NCBI GenBank assembly: GCA_017592775.1
Contig: JAGFNJ010000038.1
Location: 1 to 52,718, forward strand
Source: Candidatus Accumulibacter conexus
GTDB lineage: Bacteria > Pseudomonadota > Gammaproteobacteria > Burkholderiales > Rhodocyclaceae
Direction: 5' to 3'
Length of the DNA: 52,718 nt
The notes under the pieces were generated by a model. The model was given only the letters and a program-made list of their open reading frames with translations, was not told the origin of the DNA and did not search any database. Positions 2,768-52,718 of the stretch are shown one piece after another (position 1 is the stretch's first letter; every line of letters begins with the position of its first letter). Both the position numbers and the translations under genes were made by a program.

Positions 2768-3250
2768 TCAGGACGTGGCGGAACGCTGCGGTGGCGCCGA
2801 AATCGCCGCTGCCGTCACATGCACCTTGTTGCCGACAAGCTGCAGGTCACACGAAACAATGAAGCGCTTGTCGTCGGGAAACATGAGGCGCTTTTTTTCG
2901 ATCAGCCGCAGAAGCTCTGCCTGCGCCGCCGCCGCACCACCCGGGTCGGTTTTTCGAGCGAAGTCGCCAAGATTCTTCAGCGTATTCGCCTGCTCTTCCA
3001 GGGGCAACAGGCTGACATTCCATGCAAGAACGATTGCCTTCGCCCGATGGCGGTATTCGTCCAGCGACGCATCCTCACCGACTTCGCTGTCGAGGATTTT
3101 GCTGATGCCGTTGGAAATCTTCTGCTCCTGCGGCAAATCGCTGCGAATCACCAGTGGATGATCGACCCCCCATGCCTTCAGTCTCGATTGTGTGGCATTC
3201 AACAATTCCCTTGTCCGCGCTGCGACCTTGCGACGACTGGCTTTCCCCAT
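2768..3250 (-). CDS. Hypothetical protein between hsdR and hsdM
   Basis: A 160-aa soluble protein with a basic N-terminus (MGKASRRKVAARTRELL), mainly helical, and a C-terminal strand region (RFIVSCDLQLVGNKVHVTAAA). There are no membrane segments, cysteine motifs or recognisable catalytic residues, and I do not recognise the family. It starts 18 bp after the hsdR stop and ends 10 bp before hsdM, so it is firmly inside the restriction-modification operon. A role in regulating or assembling the complex is possible but unsupported. Confidence 0.65.
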   Translation of the reverse strand: MGKASRRKVAARTRELLNATQSRLKAWGVDHPLVIRSDLPQEQKISNGISKILDSEVGEDASLDEYRHRAKAIVLAWNVSLLPLEEQANTLKNLGDFARKTDPGGAAAAQAELLRLIEKKRLMFPDDKRFIVSCDLQLVGNKVHVTAAAISAPPQRSATS

Positions 3251-5912: not shown

Positions 5913-8063
5913 TCAGCCGCCGCCCCGCCGCCAGGTGTGCCAGCGTTCGACCCAGCGCAGCAGCTCTGCCGGCGCGTGCGCCTTCTTCCAGACGCCGGCG
6001 ACGTACTTGTTCGCCTCGGCGAGCGTCGGGTAGATGTGGATCGTGCCGAGGATGCGGTTGAGCCCGATTCCCTGCTTCATCGCCAGGACGTATTCGGCGA
6101 TGAGGTCGCCGGCGTGCTCGCCGACGATCGTCACGCCGAGGATGCGGTCCTTGCCGGGAACGGTCAGCACCTTGATGAAGCCATGTGCCTCGCCGTCGGC
6201 GATCGCGCGGTCGAGGTCGTCGATGTCGTAGCGCGAGACCTCGTAGGCGATTCCGCGCTCCTTCGCCTCCTGCTCGTTGAGGCCGACGCGGGCGACCTCG
6301 GGCTCGACGAAGGTCGACCACGGGATCACCGAGTAGTCGGCGCGGAACTTGCGAAACGGCGCGAAGAGGGCGTTGACTGCGGCGTACCACGCCTGGTGCG
6401 CGGCGGTGTGGGTGAACTGGAACGGCCCGGCGACGTCGCCGGCGGCATAGATGTTCGGGTAGCGCGTCTGCAGGAATTCGTTGATCGCGACCGTGCGCTC
6501 ACCCGGGATGCCGAGTTCCTCGAGGCCGTAGCCGCTGAGGTTGCCGACGCGGCCGAGCGCCACCAGCAAGCCGTCGAAGGGGATGCGGACCGCGCTGCCG
6601 GCATGTTCGGCGACCAGGATCTTCTCGCCCTGCTCGATGACGAACTCCTTCGCCTGGTGCTCGAGCAGCAGCCGCACGCCCTCGGCGCGAAAGCGTTCGG
6701 CGACCATCGCCGACACCTCGGGATCCTCGCGCGGCATGATGCGCGGACCACGCTCGACCTGCGTCACCTGCGCGCCGAGGCGGGCGAAGGTCTGCGTCAA
6801 CTCGGAGCCGATCGGCCCGCCGCCGAGAACGAGCAGGCGGCGCGGCAACTGGCGCAGGTCCCAGACGGTATCCGATGTCAGGTAACCGACCGCATCGATC
6901 CCCGGCAGCGGTGGCACGAAGGGCCGCGCACCGGTGGCGATGACGATGCTGCGCGTGCTGAGCGTCTGCGTCGTGCCGTCGTGGCGGCTGATCTCGACCT
7001 GCCACGGCGAGACGATTCGCGCCGAGCCCTCGACCACATCGACGCCGAGCTGGCTGTAGCGCTCGACCGAGTCGTGCGGCTCGACGGTACGGATGATCCG
7101 CTGCACACGTTCCATCACCTCGGCGAAGTCGAAGCGTGCTGTGGCCTCGGCAATGCCGAACTCGCGCGCGCGGGCGATGTGCGACAGCAGCTTGGCCGAA
7201 CGGATCAGCGCTTTCGACGGCACGCAGCCGGTGTTCAGGCAGTCGCCGCCCATGCGGTGCTTCTCGACCAGGGTCACCCTGGCCTTGACGGCAGCGGCGA
7301 TGTAGGAAGTGACGAGGCCGGCGCTGCCGGCGCCGATGACCACCAGGTTGCGGTCGAAGCGCGGCGGTCTCTGCCAGCCGGCGTAGACCTTGCGCGCCTG
7401 CCCCGCGTCGACGATCTTGCGCGCCAGCAGGGGAAACAGACCAAGCAGCGCGAACGAGGCGAGCAGGCCGGGCGAGACGATGCCGGCCAGTGAATCGATG
7501 CGCGCCAGTTGCGTGCCGGCATTGACGTACACGACGGTGCCGGCGAGCATGCCGACCTGACTGACCCAGTAGAAGGTGCGCGCCTTCATCGCCGTCAGTC
7601 CGAGCAGCAGATTGACCAGGAAGAAGGGGAAGACCGGGATCAGCCGCAGCGTGAACAGATAGAACGGACCGTCCCGCCGGATGCCTTCATCCACCGCCTT
7701 GAGGCGTTCGCCGAAGCGCCCGCCGACCCAGTCGCGGAGCAGGAAGCGCGCGGCGAGAAAGGCCAGCGTGGCACCGATCGACGAGGCAAAGGAGACGATG
7801 ACGGTGCCCCAGAGCACGCCGAAGATGGCGCCACCGGCGAGGGTCATCAGCGCGGCGCCGGGCAGCGACAGCGCGGTGACCGCGACGTAGGCGAGGAGAT
7901 AGAGGCCGGCAACCTGCCACGGGTGCTGCCGATGGTAATCGCCGAGCGCCGCCTGCTGCGCCTTCAGCGCATCGAGGCTGAGATACTGGCCGAGTCCGAG
8001 CTGGAAGTAGGCGACGACGGCGACGGCGATGACGGCGAGGATGACGATCTTCTTGCTGTTCAT
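5913..8063 (-). CDS. VTT-domain membrane protein fused to a MerA/Lpd-like flavin disulfide reductase
   Basis: A 716-aa protein. I start at the ATG at 8063 because AGGA lies 6 nt upstream; an ATG two codons earlier is possible. Residues 1-215 carry several membrane segments of the VTT (TVP38/TMEM64, SNARE-associated) type. Residues about 238-716 form a class I pyridine-nucleotide disulfide reductase, with FAD motif VVIGAGSAGL (241-250), redox pair C275-LNTG-C280, NAD motif LGGGPIGSEL, AAGDVAGPFQFTH, and a C-terminal dimer segment with HIYPTLAE. It probably reduces a disulfide or quinone-like substrate at the inner membrane. The N-terminal metal-binding domain of mercuric reductase is absent. 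Such fusions are known in proteobacteria, but their substrate is not established. Confidence 0.9.
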   Translation of the reverse strand: MNSKKIVILAVIAVAVVAYFQLGLGQYLSLDALKAQQAALGDYHRQHPWQVAGLYLLAYVAVTALSLPGAALMTLAGGAIFGVLWGTVIVSFASSIGATLAFLAARFLLRDWVGGRFGERLKAVDEGIRRDGPFYLFTLRLIPVFPFFLVNLLLGLTAMKARTFYWVSQVGMLAGTVVYVNAGTQLARIDSLAGIVSPGLLASFALLGLFPLLARKIVDAGQARKVYAGWQRPPRFDRNLVVIGAGSAGLVTSYIAAAVKARVTLVEKHRMGGDCLNTGCVPSKALIRSAKLLSHIARAREFGIAEATARFDFAEVMERVQRIIRTVEPHDSVERYSQLGVDVVEGSARIVSPWQVEISRHDGTTQTLSTRSIVIATGARPFVPPLPGIDAVGYLTSDTVWDLRQLPRRLLVLGGGPIGSELTQTFARLGAQVTQVERGPRIMPREDPEVSAMVAERFRAEGVRLLLEHQAKEFVIEQGEKILVAEHAGSAVRIPFDGLLVALGRVGNLSGYGLEELGIPGERTVAINEFLQTRYPNIYAAGDVAGPFQFTHTAAHQAWYAAVNALFAPFRKFRADYSVIPWSTFVEPEVARVGLNEQEAKERGIAYEVSRYDIDDLDRAIADGEAHGFIKVLTVPGKDRILGVTIVGEHAGDLIAEYVLAMKQGIGLNRILGTIHIYPTLAEANKYVAGVWKKAHAPAELLRWVERWHTWRRGGG

Positions 8064-8272
8064 GCTCATTCCTGGGCTGTGGTTGCGTGCGCTGGGGCGT
8101 GCCCGGCGGTGCCGGTATTGTCGGTGCTGATGATGTTTCGTCGCTGTCGTCGGCGAGAACTTACGCGCCATCGGGGCGCGGCCGCGGGCGCCCCGGTCGT
8201 TGCGACACCGCCCGACCGACCGGCGGGCGCCGCGGCGATGGTTGCGGCGCTGCGGCAGCGACTGCCGCAGCT

Positions 8273-8965
8273 TCAGGCCAGAGCCCGGTCGACCGCCGCC
8301 TGCGCGTGGATCGCGGCGGTGTCGAACAGAGGCAGCGGAGAATCGTTGGCACCGACGAGCAGCGCGATCTCGGTGCAGCCGAGGATGACCGCCTGCGCCC
8401 CCTGCGCTGCCAGCTCGTCGATCACCTTGCGGTAGAGTTCGCGCGACTCGTGGCGGATGATGCCGCGGCAGAGTTCGTCGTAGATGATGCGATGGACGGC
8501 GGCACGCGCGGCGGCGGCGGGAACGACGACGCGCAGGCCGTGGTGCTGTTGCAGGCGGTCGCGGTAGAAGGCTTCCTCCATCGTGAAGCGGGTGCCGAGC
8601 AGGCCGACGGTGTGGTGGCCCGAATCCGCGACCGCCGTCGCCGTCGCGTCGGCGATGTGCAGCAGGGGGATCGTCACCGCCGCTTCGATTTCGGCGGCGA
8701 CACGGTGCATGGTGTTGGTGCACAGCAGCAGGAAGTCGGCCCCGGCCGCCTGCAGCGCGACCGCGGTCCGCGCCAGCAGGGCGCCGGCGGCATCCCAGTC
8801 GCCTGTCTCCTGCAGCCGCTCGACGTCGTGGAAATCGACGCTGTAGAGGATCAGCTTCGCCGAGTGCAGGCCGCCGAGACGGGCGCGGACCTCCTCGTTG
8901 ATCTGCCGGTAGTAGGGCAGCGTCGATTCCCAGCTCATGCCGCCGATGAGGCCGATCGTCTTCAT
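8273..8965 (-). CDS. Aspartate/glutamate racemase family protein
   Basis: A 230-aa cofactor-independent amino-acid racemase. It starts at MKTIGLIGGMSWESTLPYYR, the family N-terminus; the longer upstream frame is Arg/Ala-rich and overlaps the neighbouring gene. The two catalytic cysteines are visible in LLLCTNTMH and VILGCTEIAL. The expected reaction is interconversion of L- and D-aspartate (or a related substrate) through Cys-based deprotonation. Its start lies 40 bp from the FAD-oxidoreductase stop on the same strand, so the two may form an operon. About 210 bp without a gene separate it from the VTT-reductase downstream. Confidence 0.92.
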   Translation of the reverse strand: MKTIGLIGGMSWESTLPYYRQINEEVRARLGGLHSAKLILYSVDFHDVERLQETGDWDAAGALLARTAVALQAAGADFLLLCTNTMHRVAAEIEAAVTIPLLHIADATATAVADSGHHTVGLLGTRFTMEEAFYRDRLQQHHGLRVVVPAAAARAAVHRIIYDELCRGIIRHESRELYRKVIDELAAQGAQAVILGCTEIALLVGANDSPLPLFDTAAIHAQAAVDRALA

Positions 8966-9005
8966 CGCCCGCACCCGAATTGCCTGGCTGCGTCGGCCGG
9001 CGGCT

Positions 9006-10208
9006 TCACGCGCTTCCTCCGGGCAGATCGGCGAAGAGACGCATGAAGCGGCGGTCGATCCAGTCCTTCCAGTGCCAGACCCAGCGTCCGGCGGCAGAGA
9101 AGGCGCCGCGCGAGGCGACGGCACAGCGGTCGCCGGTGCTGATCAGCGCCAGCCAGCGGCGCTGCGGGCGGAAGTGGATGAGCGTGCCGCCGGCGACGGC
9201 GCGGCGCAGGTTGCCGGCCAGCGGCTGGCCCATGCGGACGGCGAAGACGCCCGCCTTCTCGCGCGGATGGTCGATCATCGACGCGCAGTCACCGGCAGCG
9301 AAGATGCGCGTTTCGTCCGCCACCTGCAGCGTCTCGCCGACGCGCAGGAAACCGTCGTCATCGACCGCCAGGCCGCTGTCGCGCAGCCACGCTGCGCCGC
9401 CGGCGCGGGTCACCCAGACCACCTCGTCGGCGGCCAGCCGCTCGGCGCCGTTCGTCCCCTGCCACTGCAGCCAGCCGGCACCGGCGTCATCGACGGTAGC
9501 GGCGAGGTGCAGTTGCACGCCACGCGCCGTCAGCACGCGGCGAAACTGGTGCCGCACGGCGCGCGAGTGCGTCGCCAGGATGTCCGTGTCGCGCGTCAGC
9601 AGGTGCCAGCGCAGCCGTTCGGGGTCGGCGTGCAGCTGCGCGAACTCCTGCCGCAGGCGGTGCTGCATGGCGAGCAGCAGCTCGACGCCGGCGGCACCGC
9701 CGCCGACGACGGCGATCGTCAGCGGTTGTGCCGCCGCGTCGCCGGCAGCGGCGAGCAGCCGCGCACGTTGCAGCAGCGCCAGCCAGCGCTCGTTGAAGCC
9801 GCTGATCGGCTTCACCGGGACGACGTGCATGCTGCCTTCGGCGCCGAGGTCGATGCGCGGCGTCGAGCCGACGTTGATCGACAGCAGATCCCATGACAGG
9901 CTGCGGCCGCTGCGGCAGTGCGCCAGGCGGGCGCCGCGATCGATGCCGGTCACCTCGTCGGCGACGAAGCGGGCGCCGGCGAAGGCCGCCAGCCGCGGCA
10001 GGTCGATGTGCACCTGGTCGAAGTCGTAATGCCCGGCGACGTAGCCGGGCAGCATGCCGGAGTAGGGGGTGCGGGCGGAGCTCGAGACGACCGTCAGGCG
10101 GGCGCCGGCAAGCGGCTGCAACCCGAGTTCGCGCAGGACGATGACGTGGCTGTGGCCGCCGCCGACGAGCAGGATCTCGCCTGGGCGGCCGGATTCGGAG
10201 GAGGGCAT
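9006..10208 (-). CDS. FAD-dependent pyridine-nucleotide oxidoreductase (SelD N-terminal-domain type)
   Basis: A 400-aa flavoprotein starting at MPSSESGRPGEILLVGGGHS. The N-terminal FAD-binding segment is LLVGGGHSHVIVL, the NAD(P) motif is IAVVGGGAAGVELLLAMQHRL (about 170-190), and the C-terminal FAD motif is TRIFAAGDCASM. It resembles the stand-alone form of the domain found fused ahead of selenide-water dikinase (SelD) in some bacteria and is related to NDH-2 enzymes. No selD gene is present in the window, so a role in selenium metabolism is not supported here. The upstream frame to 10487 is a non-genic extension. Confidence 0.85.
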   Translation of the reverse strand: MPSSESGRPGEILLVGGGHSHVIVLRELGLQPLAGARLTVVSSSARTPYSGMLPGYVAGHYDFDQVHIDLPRLAAFAGARFVADEVTGIDRGARLAHCRSGRSLSWDLLSINVGSTPRIDLGAEGSMHVVPVKPISGFNERWLALLQRARLLAAAGDAAAQPLTIAVVGGGAAGVELLLAMQHRLRQEFAQLHADPERLRWHLLTRDTDILATHSRAVRHQFRRVLTARGVQLHLAATVDDAGAGWLQWQGTNGAERLAADEVVWVTRAGGAAWLRDSGLAVDDDGFLRVGETLQVADETRIFAAGDCASMIDHPREKAGVFAVRMGQPLAGNLRRAVAGGTLIHFRPQRRWLALISTGDRCAVASRGAFSAAGRWVWHWKDWIDRRFMRLFADLPGGSA

Positions 10209-24729: not shown

Positions 24730-24907
24730 AGACTTGTTCCCGGGACAGTACACTGAATTGCCCGATCTCCGCCGTTCCCTGACGGCGGGTCCAACTGTGC
24801 GCCGGTCGCCAACGCACCAGCGTCGGTTCCCGGTGGTCCGATGCGGCAGAGCTTGAGTTCCGCTTCACGGACGGCGCTGGCGAGCATTCGCCGACAGCGA
24901 AGCGGAG

Positions 24908-25606
24908 TCAGGCTGCGGCGCGAATTCCCGGTACGTCCACGATCTCGATGGCAGACGCCGGTGGCTTTTCGACGGCACGAACCAGCGCCTGCGTCATCTG
25001 TTCCAGACTGACCAGCCCGAGCCGCTCGGCTGCCGGGTGCCAGCGCGGAACGCACGCGGCAAGGGCGTAGAGTGGCGTCAGGATGATCGGCCAGCGATGC
25101 CCCGGGCCAACGACGTACCAGGGACGCAGGATGGTCGCGCGCACGCCGCTCACGGCGACCGCCGCCTCGCCGGCGGCCCGGGCGGCGAGGTAGGCGCGCA
25201 TCACGGGCGCCGGCTGCGCGACGCTGACGTAGACCAGGTGGGCGATGCCCGTCCGCGACGCCGCGCTGGCCGCGGCGCGGATCGACGCCAGATCGACCGC
25301 CTCGAATTCCGCTGCCTTGGCCGGATTGGGGTGCGCCGTACCGACCAGATGAACCAGGGTGTCACCGGGTTGCAGGGCGGTGGCGATCGACTCGCTGTCG
25401 AGCGCGTTGCCGATGATGACCTCGGCGCCTGTGGCGGCGCGCCCGGCGGCGGCGCTGCGCACGAGGAGCCGGACGCGGTGTCCGCGCGCCAGAAGTCGTT
25501 CCGCGAGGTGCGTCCCCAGATAGCCGGTGCCGCCGGTCAACACCACGGCGCCAGTCGGCGCAGCCACTGGGGTGGCGGTCGCCGGTGCGGCCTGTGCGCA
25601 AGTCAT
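24908..25606 (-). CDS. NAD(P)-binding epimerase/dehydratase-like protein (atypical SDR)
   Basis: A 232-aa protein. A GGAGG ribosome site 8-9 nt upstream fixes the start at MTCAQAAPATATPVAAPTGA. The nucleotide-binding motif is VVLTGGTGYLGTHLAERLL (about 21-39), then DTLVHLVGTAHPNP and LVYVSVAQPAP in the positions of the SDR core, and ATILRPWYVVGPGH near the active site. A YxxxK dyad is not obvious, so it is probably an atypical SDR (NmrA/NDUFA9-like) that may not be a classical dehydrogenase. The substrate is unknown. It is on the same strand as the serine dehydratase but separated by 223 bp. Confidence 0.85.
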   Translation of the reverse strand: MTCAQAAPATATPVAAPTGAVVLTGGTGYLGTHLAERLLARGHRVRLLVRSAAAGRAATGAEVIIGNALDSESIATALQPGDTLVHLVGTAHPNPAKAAEFEAVDLASIRAAASAASRTGIAHLVYVSVAQPAPVMRAYLAARAAGEAAVAVSGVRATILRPWYVVGPGHRWPIILTPLYALAACVPRWHPAAERLGLVSLEQMTQALVRAVEKPPASAIEIVDVPGIRAAA

Positions 25607-35263: not shown

Positions 35264-36421
35264 TCATGGCGGGCCACGAACCGAGGCGCCCTGCGGCATC
35301 GCCTGACGCAGCGGCGGAATCACCGCCGTCGGCACGAACCGACCCGCGCCGCAGTGCGGACAGCGCGCCCACGCGGCGCGTCCGACGCGCTGCAGGAACT
35401 CCTCCACCGTCGCCGTGACCAGCGGATCGGGCGCCGGCACCGACAACGCCTGCCGTGCCAGCGCCAGCTTCGTTGCCTTCGCTGCCGGCGCCAGCAGGCC
35501 ATAGTGCCGAATCCGCTTGAAACCGCCCGGCAACACGTGCAGCAGGAAGCGCTCGATGAACTCCGCGGGCGGCAACCGGAGCACGCGTTTGCCCGGCGTC
35601 GCGCGCACCCGGAAGCGCACTGCGGTCTCGTCCATGCCGACGAGACGCTCGTTCGAGATCGCCACGCGATGCGTGTAGCGAGCGAGGTACTCGAGCACCT
35701 GCTCCGGCCCACCGAGCGGCTGTTTCGCGTAGACCACCCAGTCGTGCCGCAGCAACTGCTGGCGCAGGGCGCGCCAGACCTTCTCGCCGGCGAGCGCTTC
35801 GGCCAACGGCTGGCCGGCGCCTCGGGCCTCGCCCAGCGCCGCGATGAACTGGCCGCGGAAGACCCGCGACAGCGCCTTGACCGGAAACAGGAAGCCGCGC
35901 TTCGGCGACTTCCACTCCCCGGCGGGGGTCAGCGCCCCGCCGGCGACCAGGGCGTGCACATGCACGTGCCGCCCGAGGTCCTGCTTCCAGGTATGCAGCA
36001 CCAGCGAGAACGCCAGCTTGCCGCCCAGCCAGCGCGGATTGGCGCCGAACTCGCCGAGGGTGGCCGAGGAGGCGGCAAAAAGCATCTCGTAGATCACCCG
36101 CGAGCGCTGACCGATCAGCGCGTGCAGCGCATGCGGCAGGGTGAACACCAGATGGAAGTACGGCACCGGCAACAGCTCCTGGCGCCGTTTCGCCAGCCAC
36201 TCCTCCCTGGCTCGGGTCTGGCACTGCGGGCAGTGGCGGTTGCGGCACGAGTGATGGACGTGTCGCGTCACACCGCAGCAGTCGCAGGTCTCGACGTGGC
36301 CGCCGAGTACGGCCGTGCGACAGGCGACGATCGCCCGCCAGACCTTCGCCTTGGCCGACGACAGGACGTGGCTGGCGAGGTACGCCGGCCCGTGCCGGCG
36401 GAAGATCTCGGCCAGCGTCAC
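35264..36421 (-). CDS. IS91-family transposase
   Basis: A 385-aa rolling-circle transposase. The N-terminal zinc-binding domain is CDCCGVTRHVHHSCRNRHCPQC, the HUH motif is LGRHVHVHALVAGGAL, and the catalytic Tyr region is VLEYLARYTHRVAISNERLV. A second zinc ribbon (ARCPHCG) is at the C-terminus. It resembles the IS801/IS1294-type branch. It starts 10 bp after the stop of the tyrosine-recombinase frame, so both are probably one transcription unit. The gene looks intact. Confidence 0.95.
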   Translation of the reverse strand: MTLAEIFRRHGPAYLASHVLSSAKAKVWRAIVACRTAVLGGHVETCDCCGVTRHVHHSCRNRHCPQCQTRAREEWLAKRRQELLPVPYFHLVFTLPHALHALIGQRSRVIYEMLFAASSATLGEFGANPRWLGGKLAFSLVLHTWKQDLGRHVHVHALVAGGALTPAGEWKSPKRGFLFPVKALSRVFRGQFIAALGEARGAGQPLAEALAGEKVWRALRQQLLRHDWVVYAKQPLGGPEQVLEYLARYTHRVAISNERLVGMDETAVRFRVRATPGKRVLRLPPAEFIERFLLHVLPGGFKRIRHYGLLAPAAKATKLALARQALSVPAPDPLVTATVEEFLQRVGRAAWARCPHCGAGRFVPTAVIPPLRQAMPQGASVRGPP

Positions 36422-48394: not shown

Positions 48395-51322
48395 ATGAGT
48401 GAACAGGGGCAGGGACAAATCGAGGGGCTTCGGCAGGCGTTGGCGGCAGGGTTCATAGATGCCGCAACCTTTGAGGCAGCCGCAGCCGCGATCGCGGCCG
48501 GCACTCCCCTGACCGACGCGAGCGGGGCCAAACGGGTCGGGGGGCAATCGCTGCCCGCGGCGCCACTTGCCTCCGGCGTGCGGCAGGGCGAGGTCACGGG
48601 TAGTGGCGCCTTGGCGCAGGGCAACGGCGACGCGCTCAGCAGCGCGGTCAAGATCGACGGGGACAACAGCGGCGCCATCGTCATCCACACCGAGATCGTT
48701 AACCACTACTGTCACGCCGCGGGCAGCGATCCTGCCGGCAAGCGCCTGATCGCCAGCCAAGTTGGCGCCTATCTCGCCTGGCTGCAAGAGCGCACGCAGA
48801 GCATCGAGCTGCGCGGAATTGAACGTGCGGGTTCGTCACCGGTGATAGTCTTGCCACTCGAGACGGCTTACGTACCGCTTCGCGCTCGAGTCTTGCCTTT
48901 GGCCGACCACGTGCATGGACGGTCTGCGGGGCGGCGCGAAACTATCGGGCGGCACGCGGGTCTGTCGGATTCGGTTCCTGTTGGCGGATACGACAGCAGC
49001 GAGTCGGACCTTCTGCTGAGCGAGGTTCTCGGCTACGGTAATCGCGTCGCGATCATTGGGGGGCCGGGTTCTGGTAAGACCACCGTGCTGCTTCATATGG
49101 CTTGGGCGCTGGCTTCCTCCCTGCTGGCCAGGGCACCCGAGCCGGCTCGATCGCGTCTCGGTTTGACGATGGCGCCGAACGAACTCCCGCTGCCGATTCT
49201 CGTGCCGCTTGCCTCGTTCGCCCGCTATCGCCGCCACTTGCCGGCGGATGCGCTGGCGCGCGAACGAACCTTGGCCCACTTCATCTCGTATCATCTAATT
49301 AGCAGGGAAGCGCCGTTCGACCTCCCGGCCGACTTCTTTGTTCGGCTGCTCCACGAGGGGCGAAACGTCCTCCTGCTGCTCGACGGGTTAGACGAAGTGG
49401 CGAACGAGGGCGAGCGTGCCGAAGTCCGTCAGGCCGTCGAGAATCTCGTCGGCGGCCGGCGCGCGATGCGCGTCGTCGTCACCTGCCGCACGATCGCCTG
49501 GCGCAGCGGCGGCACGGCGCTCGGAGGCGATTTCCGGCAGATCGACGTGCGGCCGCTCGACTACGACGAGCACGTCGCGCCAATGGTGCGGCAGGCATAC
49601 GCCTGCATCCACCCACAGGACAGCGTCCGCCGGCACGAACGCAGTGAAGACTTGCTCACCAGCATCCGCCGACTCGAGGCCGACCGCCGTCGGCGGCTTG
49701 GAGAGAGCGCACCGTTGCTGGTCGACAGCCCGCTGCTGGTGCGGCTGCTGCTGATCGTGCATCTCAACAACCGCACGCTACCCGAGCAGCGTGCCGATCT
49801 CTTCGACAAGGCGATCAACGCGCTGCTGCAGGTCGACTACGGCCATGACGAGAGCGACAAGCGCGAGTTGTCGCTCGACTGGACGTTGTACCGCGATATG
49901 GCGCAGCATCTTGCCTTCCACATGCACCAGCAGGGTGCCGACCAAGGGCGCGAGATCGAGGAGCCGGCTCTGCGTGCGATCGTCGAAACAGAACCGGAGT
50001 TTCAGCCACGCATCCAAGACTTCGTTCGTCAAGCAAGGCATCGGGGCAGTGTGCTAGAAGAGCGGGCTGGTGCCTATCGCTTCCTACATCTCGCCTTGCA
50101 GGAGTTCCTCGTTGCCCGCTACCTGAGCGAAGTCATCGGTCGCGACAGCCGCGACGCAATGCTCTCATTTCTCACCGGGCGATTTGATGACTCTTGGTGG
50201 CGTGAGCCGATTCTGCTACTTGCGGGCTATCAAGCGACACGGGCCGCGCGCTCAACTCGCGAGCTGCTGCGGGCTCTGACGGAAACCACTGGCGAGGCCA
50301 ACGCCCGATTCGCGGCAGTGGAGTTGGCGGCGACGGCGGCCACCGAGTGGCGTGATAGTGGCGAGCCACTGCGTGCCCATTGCGCCCATCGGATCGTCGC
50401 TCTCTTGAACGACCTCGATGCGCTCAGGAACTCAAGGCCGGCTGTTCGTGCCCGGGCAGGTGACCGGTTGGCCCAACTGGGCGACCCCCGTTTTGACGAG
50501 AATCGCTTCCATCTTCCGGCTGACGATATGCTGGGTTTCGTACGCATCGCGGCCGACCCGAACTTCATGATCGGCACACGTCGCAGAGACGTTCAGCGGC
50601 TCGTCAGGATCACTGGCTACGGCGTAGACGAGCGCGAGATCAGCGATCTGGCTACGCCAACTTCTGAGTTCTATGTCGCGCGCTATCCCGTAACGGTGGC
50701 GCAGTTTAGAGCTTTCGTTGAGGCAACCAGTTTTTCGATCGGCGAGATCAACGCGCTGGCCGACCCGGACAGTCGGCCCGTGCGCTGGGTGAACTGGCAC
50801 GAGGCTCAGGCTTGGTGCCATTGGCTTAACGGAGTCCTGGCGGCTTCGCCGGTACTCGCGGCCAGCCCGGTCGCCACACTCGTGCGCCAGCACAGGTGGC
50901 AAGTCGCACTGCCGAGCGAGTTGGAGTGGGAGAAAGCGGCAAGGGGCGGCTTGCTAGGGGCAGTTTTTCCGTGGGGCGACGACCTTGATCCGAACTGGGC
51001 CAACCAATTTGGTTCCGCGATCGGCGACACGTCGGTAGTTGGCTGCTTTCCCCCCAATCGCTTCGGCCTTTTCGACGTGGTTGGCAACGTTTGGGAGTGG
51101 ACCCGTAGCCTAGCTGCTCCATACTCATCCCTGTTGGCTGATGGGGGGCGCGAAGACTTGAAGACTGGCAACGGCGAGGACCGCGTCTTGCGAGGTGGCT
51201 CGTGGGACTTTCAGCGAGACATCGCTCGGTGCGGCGCGCGTAACTGGGAGCAACCCGAGGATCGGTACGACCACATCGGCTTTCGGATGGTGCTGCATTC
51301 TCCCCCGGTTCCTCCCCTTTGA
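48395..51322 (+). CDS. NACHT NTPase fused to a C-terminal FGE-sulfatase (C-type-lectin-fold) domain
   Basis: A 975-aa protein. The N-terminus (1-150) has a short helical segment and then a Gly/Ala-rich AVKIDGDNSGAIVIHTEIV region. The NACHT domain has Walker A GGPGSGKTT (about 222-230), Walker B LLLLDGLDEVA (about 326-336) and VVVTCRTIAWR. A helical region (about 430-700) leads into an FGE-sulfatase domain from about 725, with EFYVARYPVTVAQFRAFVEA, LPSELEWEKAARGG, FGLFDVVGNVWEWT and the terminal RVLRGGSWDFQRD...HIGFRMVL. In DGR-encoded relatives this last segment is the variable region. Expected role: a signalling or defence-type STAND protein whose lectin-fold tip binds ligand. Start chosen by the GGGGGAACT ribosome site. 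Confidence 0.92.
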   Translation: MSEQGQGQIEGLRQALAAGFIDAATFEAAAAAIAAGTPLTDASGAKRVGGQSLPAAPLASGVRQGEVTGSGALAQGNGDALSSAVKIDGDNSGAIVIHTEIVNHYCHAAGSDPAGKRLIASQVGAYLAWLQERTQSIELRGIERAGSSPVIVLPLETAYVPLRARVLPLADHVHGRSAGRRETIGRHAGLSDSVPVGGYDSSESDLLLSEVLGYGNRVAIIGGPGSGKTTVLLHMAWALASSLLARAPEPARSRLGLTMAPNELPLPILVPLASFARYRRHLPADALARERTLAHFISYHLISREAPFDLPADFFVRLLHEGRNVLLLLDGLDEVANEGERAEVRQAVENLVGGRRAMRVVVTCRTIAWRSGGTALGGDFRQIDVRPLDYDEHVAPMVRQAYACIHPQDSVRRHERSEDLLTSIRRLEADRRRRLGESAPLLVDSPLLVRLLLIVHLNNRTLPEQRADLFDKAINALLQVDYGHDESDKRELSLDWTLYRDMAQHLAFHMHQQGADQGREIEEPALRAIVETEPEFQPRIQDFVRQARHRGSVLEERAGAYRFLHLALQEFLVARYLSEVIGRDSRDAMLSFLTGRFDDSWWREPILLLAGYQATRAARSTRELLRALTETTGEANARFAAVELAATAATEWRDSGEPLRAHCAHRIVALLNDLDALRNSRPAVRARAGDRLAQLGDPRFDENRFHLPADDMLGFVRIAADPNFMIGTRRRDVQRLVRITGYGVDEREISDLATPTSEFYVARYPVTVAQFRAFVEATSFSIGEINALADPDSRPVRWVNWHEAQAWCHWLNGVLAASPVLAASPVATLVRQHRWQVALPSELEWEKAARGGLLGAVFPWGDDLDPNWANQFGSAIGDTSVVGCFPPNRFGLFDVVGNVWEWTRSLAAPYSSLLADGGREDLKTGNGEDRVLRGGSWDFQRDIARCGARNWEQPEDRYDHIGFRMVLHSPPVPPL
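51188..51292 (+). repeat. Variable-region-like 3' end of the NACHT-FGE gene
   Basis: These 105 bp encode LRGGSWDFQRDIARCGARNW and the rest up to GFRMV. They align without gaps to the template-like sequence at 52326-52430 on the minus strand. By hand count 10 of the 24 adenines of the template-like copy are replaced here, all at codon positions 1 or 2. Of the 81 other bases 23 differ, mostly at third positions. So amino-acid changes concentrate at template adenines, but this copy was not made directly from that template. Confidence 0.65.
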
Positions 51323-51388
51323 TCCCTGTCTTCTGTGAACTCGGTCGCTTCGGGTCCCCGACTCTGCGCGATTCACGGGTGCGCAATT

Positions 51389-51437
51389 CCAATTCGGGGG
51401 ACAGTTCAATTCCCAATTCGGGGGCAGCATACTCAAT
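51389..51437 (+). repeat. Pair of short direct repeats (AATTCGGGGG-CAG type)
   Basis: CCAATTCGGGGGACAG (51389-51404) and CCAATTCGGGGGCAG (51413-51427) are followed by TTCAATTC and CATACTCAATC. The pattern recalls the dispersed GGGGACAG-TATACT-AATTC sequences seen around small IS200-like REP-associated transposase genes. No such gene is present here. The 51323-51519 interval holds nothing else identifiable. Confidence 0.5.
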
Positions 51438-51519
51438 CCCGTGGGGGCACGTTCGACGCGTTCCGGGTACGCAACCTCAGCGTTAGCGGCGCCGGTGTGC
51501 GTTTCGCTGCAGTGCCGCC

Positions 51520-51712
51520 GAGGCGGTCAAGATCGATGGTGGCCACGCCGGCGCCATGATCCACACGCAGATCGTCAAGAACTACTACGATCTCGCGGGC
51601 AGCGATCCAGCTGACAAGGGCCTGATCGTCGGTCACCTGGGCGCCTATCTCGGCTGCCTTCAGGGAGGCACGCAGAGCGTCGAGCTGCGCGGAAACGAGC
51701 GTTCGGGCGCGC
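51520..51712 (+). pseudogene. Remnant of a second NACHT-FGE-type gene (N-terminal segment)
   Basis: In-frame similarity to the intact gene: EAVKIDGGHAGAMIHTQIVK and then GSDPADKGLIVGHLGAYLGC, TQSVELRGNERSG, matching AVKIDGDNSGAIVIHTEIVN, GSDPAGKRLIASQVGAYLAW, TQSIELRGIERAG of the NACHT-FGE protein (about residues 84-146). One codon is deleted. Beyond about 51712 similarity stops and a 17-bp tandem repeat follows. Neither the NACHT nor the FGE domain is present in this copy. Confidence 0.75.
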
Positions 51713-51790
51713 TCGCGGCTCAGCCTGAGGCTGGCGCCGCCGACGCGCAGCTCAACAAGCTGCGGCTCTACCTGCGCCTGGCACGGCAGT

Positions 51791-51858
51791 GGGATTGGCT
51801 GGGCAGTGGGATTGGCTGGGCAGTGGGATTGGCTGGGCAGTGGGATTGGCTGGGCAGT
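51791..51858 (+). repeat. 17-bp tandem repeat, four perfect copies
   Basis: The unit GGGATTGGCTGGGCAGT is repeated four times without change, with a partial GGCAGT before it. As 17 is not a multiple of three, each copy shifts the reading frame, so the stretch is not a coding repeat in a conserved protein. It lies between the NACHT-FGE remnant and the template-like repeat. The next 470 bp (51859-52325) have no supportable gene. Confidence 0.95.
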
Positions 51859-52325
51859 GGTCAGTACGAGCACGCGAGCCGCATCGTCGCCGGGATTGGC
51901 CGCCTGCTCGGCGGCTGGATTCGCCAGACCGCGTCCGGTCGCAGCGGCAGCGGCGCTGCCCGCGGCGATCGCGCGGGCGATGAGTCTGATCGGCGGCTGC
52001 GCCGGCGATGCCGCGCTGCTCGCTGCAATCGTCGCGCGGCTTCGTGCGCCGGGTCGGGGCGGGTACGGCGGGCTTGCTGGCCTGGCCGTACCCGTGCTTC
52101 TCTATGCGCCCGGCGCGGGCAATGCCCCGCTGTCGCCCTGCCTTGCGGCCTGCGCGCGGACCAGACGGGTCTGGCGCTGTTCTTCTTCCTTCGCCTCGGC
52201 CGGCAAAGCCGCTGTCGCGGGTCGGCCGGCATTTCCGGAACACGCGCGGCATGGTGATGCCCGCGCGCCGTTCCGCCAGGCGGCGGAACCAGAAGAAGGG
52301 GCGGAAGAACATGGGAAGAACGCAA

Positions 52326-52430
52326 CAGCACGCGAAAACCGATGTTGTCATTGCGGTTGTCCGGGTGATTCCTGTTGCGGATGCCACAGCGCGCATTGTC
52401 CCGGTGATTGTTCCACGAGCCGCCGCGCAC
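52326..52430 (-). repeat. Template-repeat-like sequence, Asn-codon-rich copy of the FGE variable end
   Basis: Read on the minus strand it encodes [20 protein letters not shown] followed by [16 protein letters not shown]. Eight AAC/AAT codons occupy positions that vary in lectin-fold DGR targets, and AAY codons are the hallmark of DGR template repeats, since adenine mutagenesis of AAY reaches many residues without stop codons. Flanking sequence reads GEV before and RSSHV after, but no FGE domain precedes it. It is therefore not the end of a gene in the window. No reverse transcriptase or avd-like gene is visible nearby. It could alternatively be a broken FGE gene end. Confidence 0.65.
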
Positions 52431-52492
52431 GACCTCTCCAGACTGCCTGGCCGGATGTCGCCACCCGGCGCGCGTAGACTACCAGAACGACC

Positions 52493-52523
52493 AAAAAAAA
52501 ACGGGCCGCGCTGCGCGCGCAGC
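52493..52523 (-). terminator. Possible intrinsic terminator of the right-edge gene
   Basis: On the minus strand a palindrome GCTGCGCGCGCAGC (52523-52510) is followed, after 8 nt, by nine T residues (52501-52493). The gap between stem and T-run is longer than ideal. It lies about 60 bp beyond the stop codon of the partial gene at the right edge and just before the template-like repeat. Confidence 0.4.
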
Positions 52524-52585
52524 AGTTCTCATTTCAGATTCCATGGTAGCGGGCGGTGAGGGTAGAGACTGTTGGAAGGGGTCAA

Positions 52586-52718
52586 TCAGCTGGTGTCTGG
52601 GGCGTTGGGAGCGAGGCGCTGCTGCATGAAGCGCATGAGGTGATCCCAGTCATCGAACGGCAGGTACTGTAGCAAGGCGCGCAGGTGTTCGAAGAAGGTA
52701 CGGCGGGAGGGCAGCAGG
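52586..52718 (-). CDS. C-terminal end of an unidentified protein, possibly a transposase (partial)
   Basis: An open frame enters from the right edge and ends with LRALLQYLPFDDWDHLMRFM, then QQRLAPNAPDTS and a TGA. The 43 visible residues have good amphipathic helical character. The ending is reminiscent of some IS transposase C-termini, but I cannot assign a family. It may be the end of an element that separates the template-like repeat from its reverse transcriptase. Confidence 0.4.
   Translation of the reverse strand, partial: LLPSRRTFFEHLRALLQYLPFDDWDHLMRFMQQRLAPNAPDTS

What the first reader, a model, noticed from the sequence alone, without database searches (positions are those of the whole stretch)
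48395..52430. NACHT-FGE protein with a template-repeat-like copy of its C-terminus on the opposite strand: possible remnant DGR
The last 105 bp of the FGE domain align gap-free with 52326-52430 (minus), where eight AAY (Asn) codons sit at the variable positions. By hand count all 10 adenine differences fall at codon positions 1-2, while 19 of 23 other differences are at third positions. This fits a DGR history followed by drift, or a template serving another target. The inverted orientation and missing reverse transcriptase are unusual. NACHT-FGE proteins diversified by DGRs may be adaptable immune-type receptors.
Basis: partly seen in the sequence, partly recalled or inferred. Interest (0 to 1): 0.82.

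Follow-up and report, generated by a model that had tools for sequence, protein, structure and literature searches.

The report
Orphan template of receptor-diversifying retroelement
A bacterium, probably a Candidatus Accumulibacter species, keeps the template and folded RNA of a retroelement that once rewrote the tip of a neighbouring immune-type receptor, but the reverse transcriptase that copies the template is gone from the locus.

Summary
The copy at 52326-52430(-) is a real DGR template repeat (TR), but the window's NACHT-FGE gene is not its current target. The genuine variable repeat (VR) is contig C30:233-366(-), the end of a second, convergent NACHT-FGE gene: 21 of 134 positions differ, 20 at template adenines. 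With adenines as wildcards, only this VR and the TR itself match in the genome. One insertion sequence in the VR-TR spacer appears to separate the contigs. Intact Accumulibacter relatives carry receptor, RT, antisense avd, TR, receptor; in the window the RT and the first half of avd are deleted, leaving an Avd tail fused to a NACHT fragment. The TR keeps a covariation-supported folded 3' RNA, also found beside TRs in 18 of 40 named loci tested, mostly Chloroflexota and Proteobacteria, without an Rfam match. Most likely: a recently disabled DGR with a frozen receptor; RT supplied in trans is not excluded. Degenerate NACHT-linked DGR loci are published (PMC10907252). New member of a known kind; the RNA is the freshest part.

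The parts
48395..51322 (+). First receptor: NACHT-FGE gene (975 aa), convergent with the TR; its end (51184-51317) is VR-like but not a current match
   Evidence: Pfam NACHT 38.1 and FGE 150.6 bits; best of 13 TRs still leaves 27 non-adenine differences
51523..51711 (+). Fragment of a NACHT gene N-terminus
   Evidence: tblastn of the window receptor, 61% over 64 aa, E 7e-14
51736..51984 (+). C-terminal remnant of avd, in one open frame (51556-52257) with the NACHT fragment
   Evidence: NF033474 28.4 bits (cut-off 80, so below it), positions 74-104; tblastn with the relative's Avd; DNA homology to the relative's TR-RT interval ends at 51736
51785..51860 (.). 17-bp tandem repeat, 4.5 copies, inside the avd remnant
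   Evidence: Tandem Repeats Finder
52052..52300 (-). Conserved folded RNA 3' of the TR (model R1 core 52108-52235)
   Evidence: Covariation on 11 loci; covariance model match 144.9 bits, window in the training set
52301..52434 (-). Template repeat (TR), 25 adenines
   Evidence: 20 of 21 differences to the VR at C30:233-366 are at TR adenines; whole-genome pattern search
52435..52520 (-). Remaining part of the VR-TR spacer
   Evidence: DNA homology to L085 and L086 up to about 52519
52521..52718 (.). End of an insertion sequence, cut by the contig end (start placed by eye)
   Evidence: 179-base query found at 11 places in the genome, itself included; terminal repeat agrees with the one at the start of C30

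Best explanation
The window end holds the template half of a diversity-generating retroelement. When complete, the minus-strand template repeat (52301-52434) and its folded 3' RNA would be transcribed, bound by RT and Avd, and copied with errors at adenines into cDNA that replaces the end of the convergent NACHT-FGE gene (now on contig C30), randomising up to 25 positions in the FGE/C-type-lectin tip of a STAND-type receptor. In this genome a deletion removed the RT and the first half of avd, and one insertion sequence landed between VR and TR. Template and RNA are intact, the receptor still bears the marks of past rewriting, and diversification has most likely stopped recently, leaving a frozen receptor. 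Shown here: TR, VR, adenine specificity, RNA covariation, RT missing from its place. Well supported: adjacency of C35 and C30. Inferred from known DGRs: transcription, RT-Avd docking, homing, receptor function. Inferred from absence: present inactivity.
For: VR-TR: 20 of 21 differences at adenines over 134 nt; 20 of 20 against the TR of relative G024, p 1.6e-19; only match in the genome with adenines as wildcards. Homing-type hairpin 58 nt after the C30 VR, as after receptors of G024, G003 and G016. Intact counterparts with RT and avd. TR unit 95.8% identical to G024 over 692 nt, homology stopping at 51736. Covarying RNA. No RT of this kind on C35. C35 and C30 flanks meet in the relative's spacer.
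Against: The genome is a draft of 102 contigs; an RT in an unassembled stretch is not excluded. TR and RNA show little decay (2 window-private differences in 383 columns against 13 in 274 on the avd side), which recent loss explains but continued use would too. The hairpin loop is GACT, not the published GRNA, and it lies farther from VR than the published 4-34 bp. No expression or read data were seen.
Confidence: 0.8

Rival explanations
1. The template is still in use: RT and Avd encoded elsewhere in the cell, or RT-positive variants in the population, copy it in trans, so the C30 receptor is still diversified.
For: Non-adenine positions of the VR still equal the TR except one. C26 carries an RT 67% identical to the cognate kind with no TR detected in the 14 kb taken. 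Trans action and population variants are reported for degenerate loci of Thiohalocapsa PB-PSB1 (PMC10907252 passages).
Against: The C26 RT aligns only from residue 32 of 353 on and the missing start was not found upstream; the RNA model does not hit that locus; no full avd was found by tblastn in the own-genome loci given; one non-adenine difference is a change private to the window TR.
Confidence: 0.2
2. One reading: the NACHT-FGE gene in the window is the template's own, drifted target.
For: 72 of 105 match, and all 10 adenine differences are at codon positions 1-2. In G024 and G003 the receptor at this position is a VR of the same TR (16 of 16 and 16 of 19 differences at adenines).
Against: 23 non-adenine differences, 19 at third positions; adenine share p 0.16; no hairpin after it in the stretches searched. 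An older ancestral target relation is possible; a current one is not.
Confidence: 0.04
3. Assembly artefact: the NACHT-avd junction at 51736 or the C35-C30 relation is false and the RT is present in the real genome.
For: Draft genome; a 17-bp repeat close to the junction; contig ends in repeated insertion sequences.
Against: The junction lies about 1 kb inside the contig; other genus loci show their own RT or avd truncations (L084, L087, L088, L094, L095, L097, L099).
Confidence: 0.07
4. An ordinary FGE gene fragment that is Asn-rich by chance.
For: Pfam FGE matches the copy weakly (27.1 bits over 35 aa).
Against: Adenine-only differences to the C30 VR (p 2e-15); the same TR, 98-99% identical with its flank, beside RT genes in relatives.
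Confidence: 0.01

Closest known systems
STAND/NACHT-linked cellular DGRs of multicellular bacteria (clade 5D), with 'degenerate' loci, in Thiohalocapsa PB-PSB1 (PMC10907252: section 5 and passages read)
   Same: NACHT-type receptors with a diversified C-terminal C-type-lectin tip, commonly two targets per locus; loci that lack key machinery; Accumulibacter is named there as having multiple related DGRs
   Different: There activity was measured in environmental reads and a class has a complete locus elsewhere; here no complete locus of this sublineage was found in the genome and activity was not measured. The passages read do not describe this locus or a TR-linked RNA family
Bordetella phage BPP-1 DGR (PMC12875486, PMC3240598, PMC8867640: passages read)
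   Same: TR, VR, RT, Avd, folded RNA 3' of the TR, hairpin after VR, adenine mutagenesis
   Different: avd is antisense between TR and RT in the relatives, not upstream of TR; hairpin loop GACT instead of GRNA and farther from VR; RT and most of avd lost in the window
Treponema denticola variable protein TvpA (PDB 2y3c)
   Same: Sequence match to the tip of the C30 receptor (query residues 196-283, E 1.9e-7)
   Different: Compared by sequence only; no NACHT part in the matched stretch

Membership tests
Diversity-generating retroelement (DGR) | TR-VR pair differing (almost) only at TR adenines | tested here: met
   20 of 21 over 134 nt; 20 of 20 against the relative's TR
Diversity-generating retroelement (DGR) | Cognate error-prone RT gene at the locus | tested here: not met
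   No RT in C35; present in relatives G024 and G003 at the expected place. So the window is a remnant, not a complete DGR
Diversity-generating retroelement (DGR) | Accessory gene avd | tested here: not met
   Only a C-terminal remnant, 28.4 bits, below the cut-off of 80; full-length in relatives, 101 bits
Diversity-generating retroelement (DGR) | FGE/C-type-lectin-fold variable protein with VR at its C-terminus | tested here: met
   C30 receptor: FGE 144.6 bits, TvpA match; fold not modelled
Diversity-generating retroelement (DGR) | Hairpin after VR (GC-rich 7-10-bp stem, 4-nt GRNA loop) | tested here: inconclusive
   8-bp GC-rich stem and 4-nt loop present, loop GACT, 58 nt after VR; consensus
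Diversity-generating retroelement (DGR) | Adenine-specific mutagenesis and homing observed | not testable with these tools
   Needs reads or an assay
DGR clade 5D of PMC10907252 | Placement of the RT in that clade | not tested
   The paper's reference RT set was not at hand; relatives of P0001 include records titled Anaerolineae, Nitrosomonas and Thiohalocapsa

The most novel reading that the evidence does not exclude
A template repeat plus its covarying docking RNA is a self-standing unit that can outlive its enzyme and be worked in trans. One RNA family shared across phyla, about 97-100 nt after the TR in most loci seen, is what this lineage's RT-Avd recognises, and Accumulibacter switches receptor repertoires between 'evolving' and 'frozen' by gain and loss of RT and avd alone.
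Probability: 0.2. Interest if true: 0.75.

Novelty: new member of a known kind. Interest (0 to 1): 0.5.

Why it matters
It is a dissected case of how a receptor-diversifying system decays, with intact (G024, G003), template-only (window) and fully lost (G016) states in one genus, so whether diversification goes on without a local RT can be tested from reads. The TR-linked RNA, without an Rfam match, gives a handle (model R1) for finding templates that have no RT beside them, and for testing what RT-Avd recognises outside the Bordetella phage system.

Tried and rejected
(1) The window NACHT-FGE gene as current target: rejected. (2) The C26 RT as a full trans partner: related (67%) but shortened at the N-terminus and without a TR found in 14 kb; kept as a weak rival. 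(3) A generic TR-VR scan took templates on the plus strand of each locus only; it found C63 and C73 pairs and could not by design find the window pair; targeted comparisons did. The motif searches can miss TRs and VRs: one search missed the second VR of L086, seen. (4) Rfam: nothing up to E 1 in 51300-52718. (5) PADLOC: nothing for the C30 receptor, weak helicase-type matches for the window receptor, not used; the gene before the C30 receptor matches PDC-S60 over part of its length. (6) Weak model hits at window 36312-36421 (21.1 bits, E 0.099) and L083:3867-4006 (21.8 bits, E 0.073) taken as chance. (7) Searches for orphan or degenerate TRs and for a conserved DGR RNA listed no paper that I recognised as reporting a covarying TR-linked RNA family across phyla; one search listed 20 of 107 papers. 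The paper on the BPP-1 RNA structure (PMC11995886) is not held, so precedence there is unchecked; [quoted passage not shown] (8) No structure was predicted.
Full report
OBSERVATION. For that pair the adenine share is not beyond chance (10 of 33, p 0.16). In the rest of the genome the picture changes: C30:258-362(-) matches the minus-strand copy at 85 of 105, with 19 of 20 differences at its adenines (p 2e-15). Over the 134-nt repeat it is 20 of 21; against the TR of relative G024 it is 20 of 20 (p 1.6e-19). Twenty of 25 template adenines are changed in the VR (to G 9, T 6, C 5), near what random replacement would give. A 99-nt pattern with adenines as wildcards and up to 3 mismatches finds only C30 and the TR itself in the 4.87-Mb assembly, both at 0 mismatches, and none with the reversed control.

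TARGET. The C30 VR ends a 961-aa ORF with NACHT (39.8 bits) and FGE (144.6 bits) domains. Its tip matches formylglycine-generating enzymes and the variable protein TvpA, 2y3c. An 8-bp GC-rich stem with a 4-nt loop lies 58 nt after it. The same hairpin follows both receptors of G024, G003 and G016 at 55-58 nt, and a like one (loop AACT) follows three receptors of G010; none was found after the window receptor. Published homing hairpins have 7-10-bp stems, 4-nt GRNA loops and lie 4-34 bp from VR (PMC3240598 passages), so loop and distance differ here.

CONTIGS. The last 179 bases of C35 are found at 11 places, itself included. The first about 130 bases of C30 are found at 13 places, itself included; a 14th match is to another part of the query. 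Against the intact relative L085, C30 runs to position 3101 and C35 starts at 3114 on the same strand, so their flanks overlap by a short duplication and meet in the VR-TR spacer. The terminal repeats agree at 15 of 16 letters by eye. In G016, one contig, the two receptors also lie convergent, about 6.5 kb apart, and the flank of the first is 97.6% identical to the window's over 330 nt.

INTACT COUNTERPARTS AND LOSS. G024:C66 has the length of the Ca. Accumulibacter iunctus record DDUX01000157.1 and an identical RT; other handles agree with Accumulibacter records in contig length. The window's genus is inferred from this and from the kinship labels. G024 and G003 carry receptor(+), RT(-), avd(+, antisense), TR(-), receptor(-). 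avd of G024 is NF033474 at 101 bits, cut-off 80. The window TR unit is 95.8% identical to G024 over 692 nt and homology ends at 51736. Beyond it lies a NACHT N-terminal fragment in one open frame with the Avd tail. RT homologues at E up to 1e-20 occur in 17 of 28 genus genomes, the RNA model at E up to 0.01 in 12 of 28. G016 has neither, yet its second receptor differs from the G024 TR at 18 positions, 17 of them adenines; its first at 25, 16 adenines. Partial RT or avd pieces are seen in L084, L087, L088, L094, L095, L097 and L099.

OTHER RTs. The genome has 7 RVT_1 matches. Four have the [LI]GxxxSQ motif taken as DGR-type (motif recalled): C63, C73, C26, C24. C73 has a clear TR with two VRs (13 of 13 and 13 of 14 differences at adenines); C63 has TRs with weaker pairs. 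C26 is nearest to this lineage, 67% from residue 32 on, lies between an nSTAND1-FGE and a TIR-NACHT-FGE gene, and no TR was found there.

RNA. The 3' flank of the TR (283 nt, 11 loci, mean column identity 87%) folds with z -3.0 in the window. On the consensus structure 98.0% of 989 cells pair. Fifteen of 90 pairs show a change on both sides (shuffles 8.3 +/- 1.8; 1 of 500 reaches it). The covariation score is 0.177 against 0.108 +/- 0.006 (0 of 500) and at most 0.049 when slid (one search counts 14 such pairs). A twelfth locus, L088, disrupted in this stretch, was in the first alignment and left out. A 128-nt model hit 18 of the 40 named loci given to it at E up to 0.1, 16 at E up to 0.01 (40 of 80 fetched were given; L139 among the 18 is the G020 locus used in training). 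It hit none of 16 own-genome or relative loci without this TR (L037-L047, L093, L096-L099). Of the 18, 16 have an Asn-rich RGGS-type TR 57-133 nt before it on the same strand, 10 of them at 96-100 nt; for L141 and L147 the motif search found none, and for L152 and L157 it overran. The hits include records titled Anaerolineae, Chloroflexi, Thiodictyon, Rhodanobacteraceae and Terriglobia; of five acidobacterial records given (L158, L159, L161, L162, L165) only L165 hit, and most gammaproteobacterial ones did not. Seven hits are below 40 bits and lean on their place beside a TR. On 29 distinct rows of the model-fitted alignment, which leans to the structure, 23 of 35 pairs have changes on both sides, covariation 0.304 against 0.117 +/- 0.008. 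The loci of the other DGR-type RTs of this genome do not have it. In Bordetella a spacer 3' of TR folds and recruits RT-Avd (PMC12875486 passages); that is the basis for the docking role here.

STATE. TR plus RNA carry 2 window-private differences in 383 columns, the avd side 13 in 274; in G024 2 and 9, in G003 7 and 10 (gap columns left out, 61 of them on the avd side). So the template unit has not visibly decayed; this fits recent loss and does not by itself show continued use. Thiohalocapsa PB-PSB1 has 'degenerate' loci, some explained by trans action and some by population variants with an intact RT (PMC10907252 passages and section 5); both remain open here.

VERDICT. It is ordinary in kind and unusually well resolved; the RNA shared across phyla is the part most worth following.

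Noticed in passing
L040 (G000:C73) 6264-9053: A second, complete-looking DGR: TR 7496-7603(+), RT 7729-8721(+), VRs at 6264-6371(+) and 8946-9053(-) with 13 of 13 and 13 of 14 differences at adenines.
   Followed up: partly
L038 and L039 (G000:C63): Two further TR-like repeats (6356-6462 - and 24832-24930 +) with weaker VR pairs, one beside an RT of DGR type.
   Followed up: partly
L041 (G000:C26:40000-54000): A DGR-type RT with a shortened start between an EAD8-nSTAND1-FGE gene and a TIR-NACHT-FGE gene, no TR found: the mirror image of the window's TR without RT.
   Followed up: partly
L094 6581-6965 and L095 6056-6443: In G026 and G021 a receptor end is followed directly by the TR-type 3' RNA, as if VR and TR had recombined; no RT of this kind found in either locus.
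   Followed up: partly
L096 (G016:C1:2416000-2434000): Complete genome with both convergent receptors but no TR, RNA or RT of this lineage found; unrelated genes lie between them.
   Followed up: partly
L101 (G000:C77:6699-9877): Next to another copy of the same insertion-sequence end lies an open frame that reads by eye like the start of a TIR-type protein.
   Followed up: no
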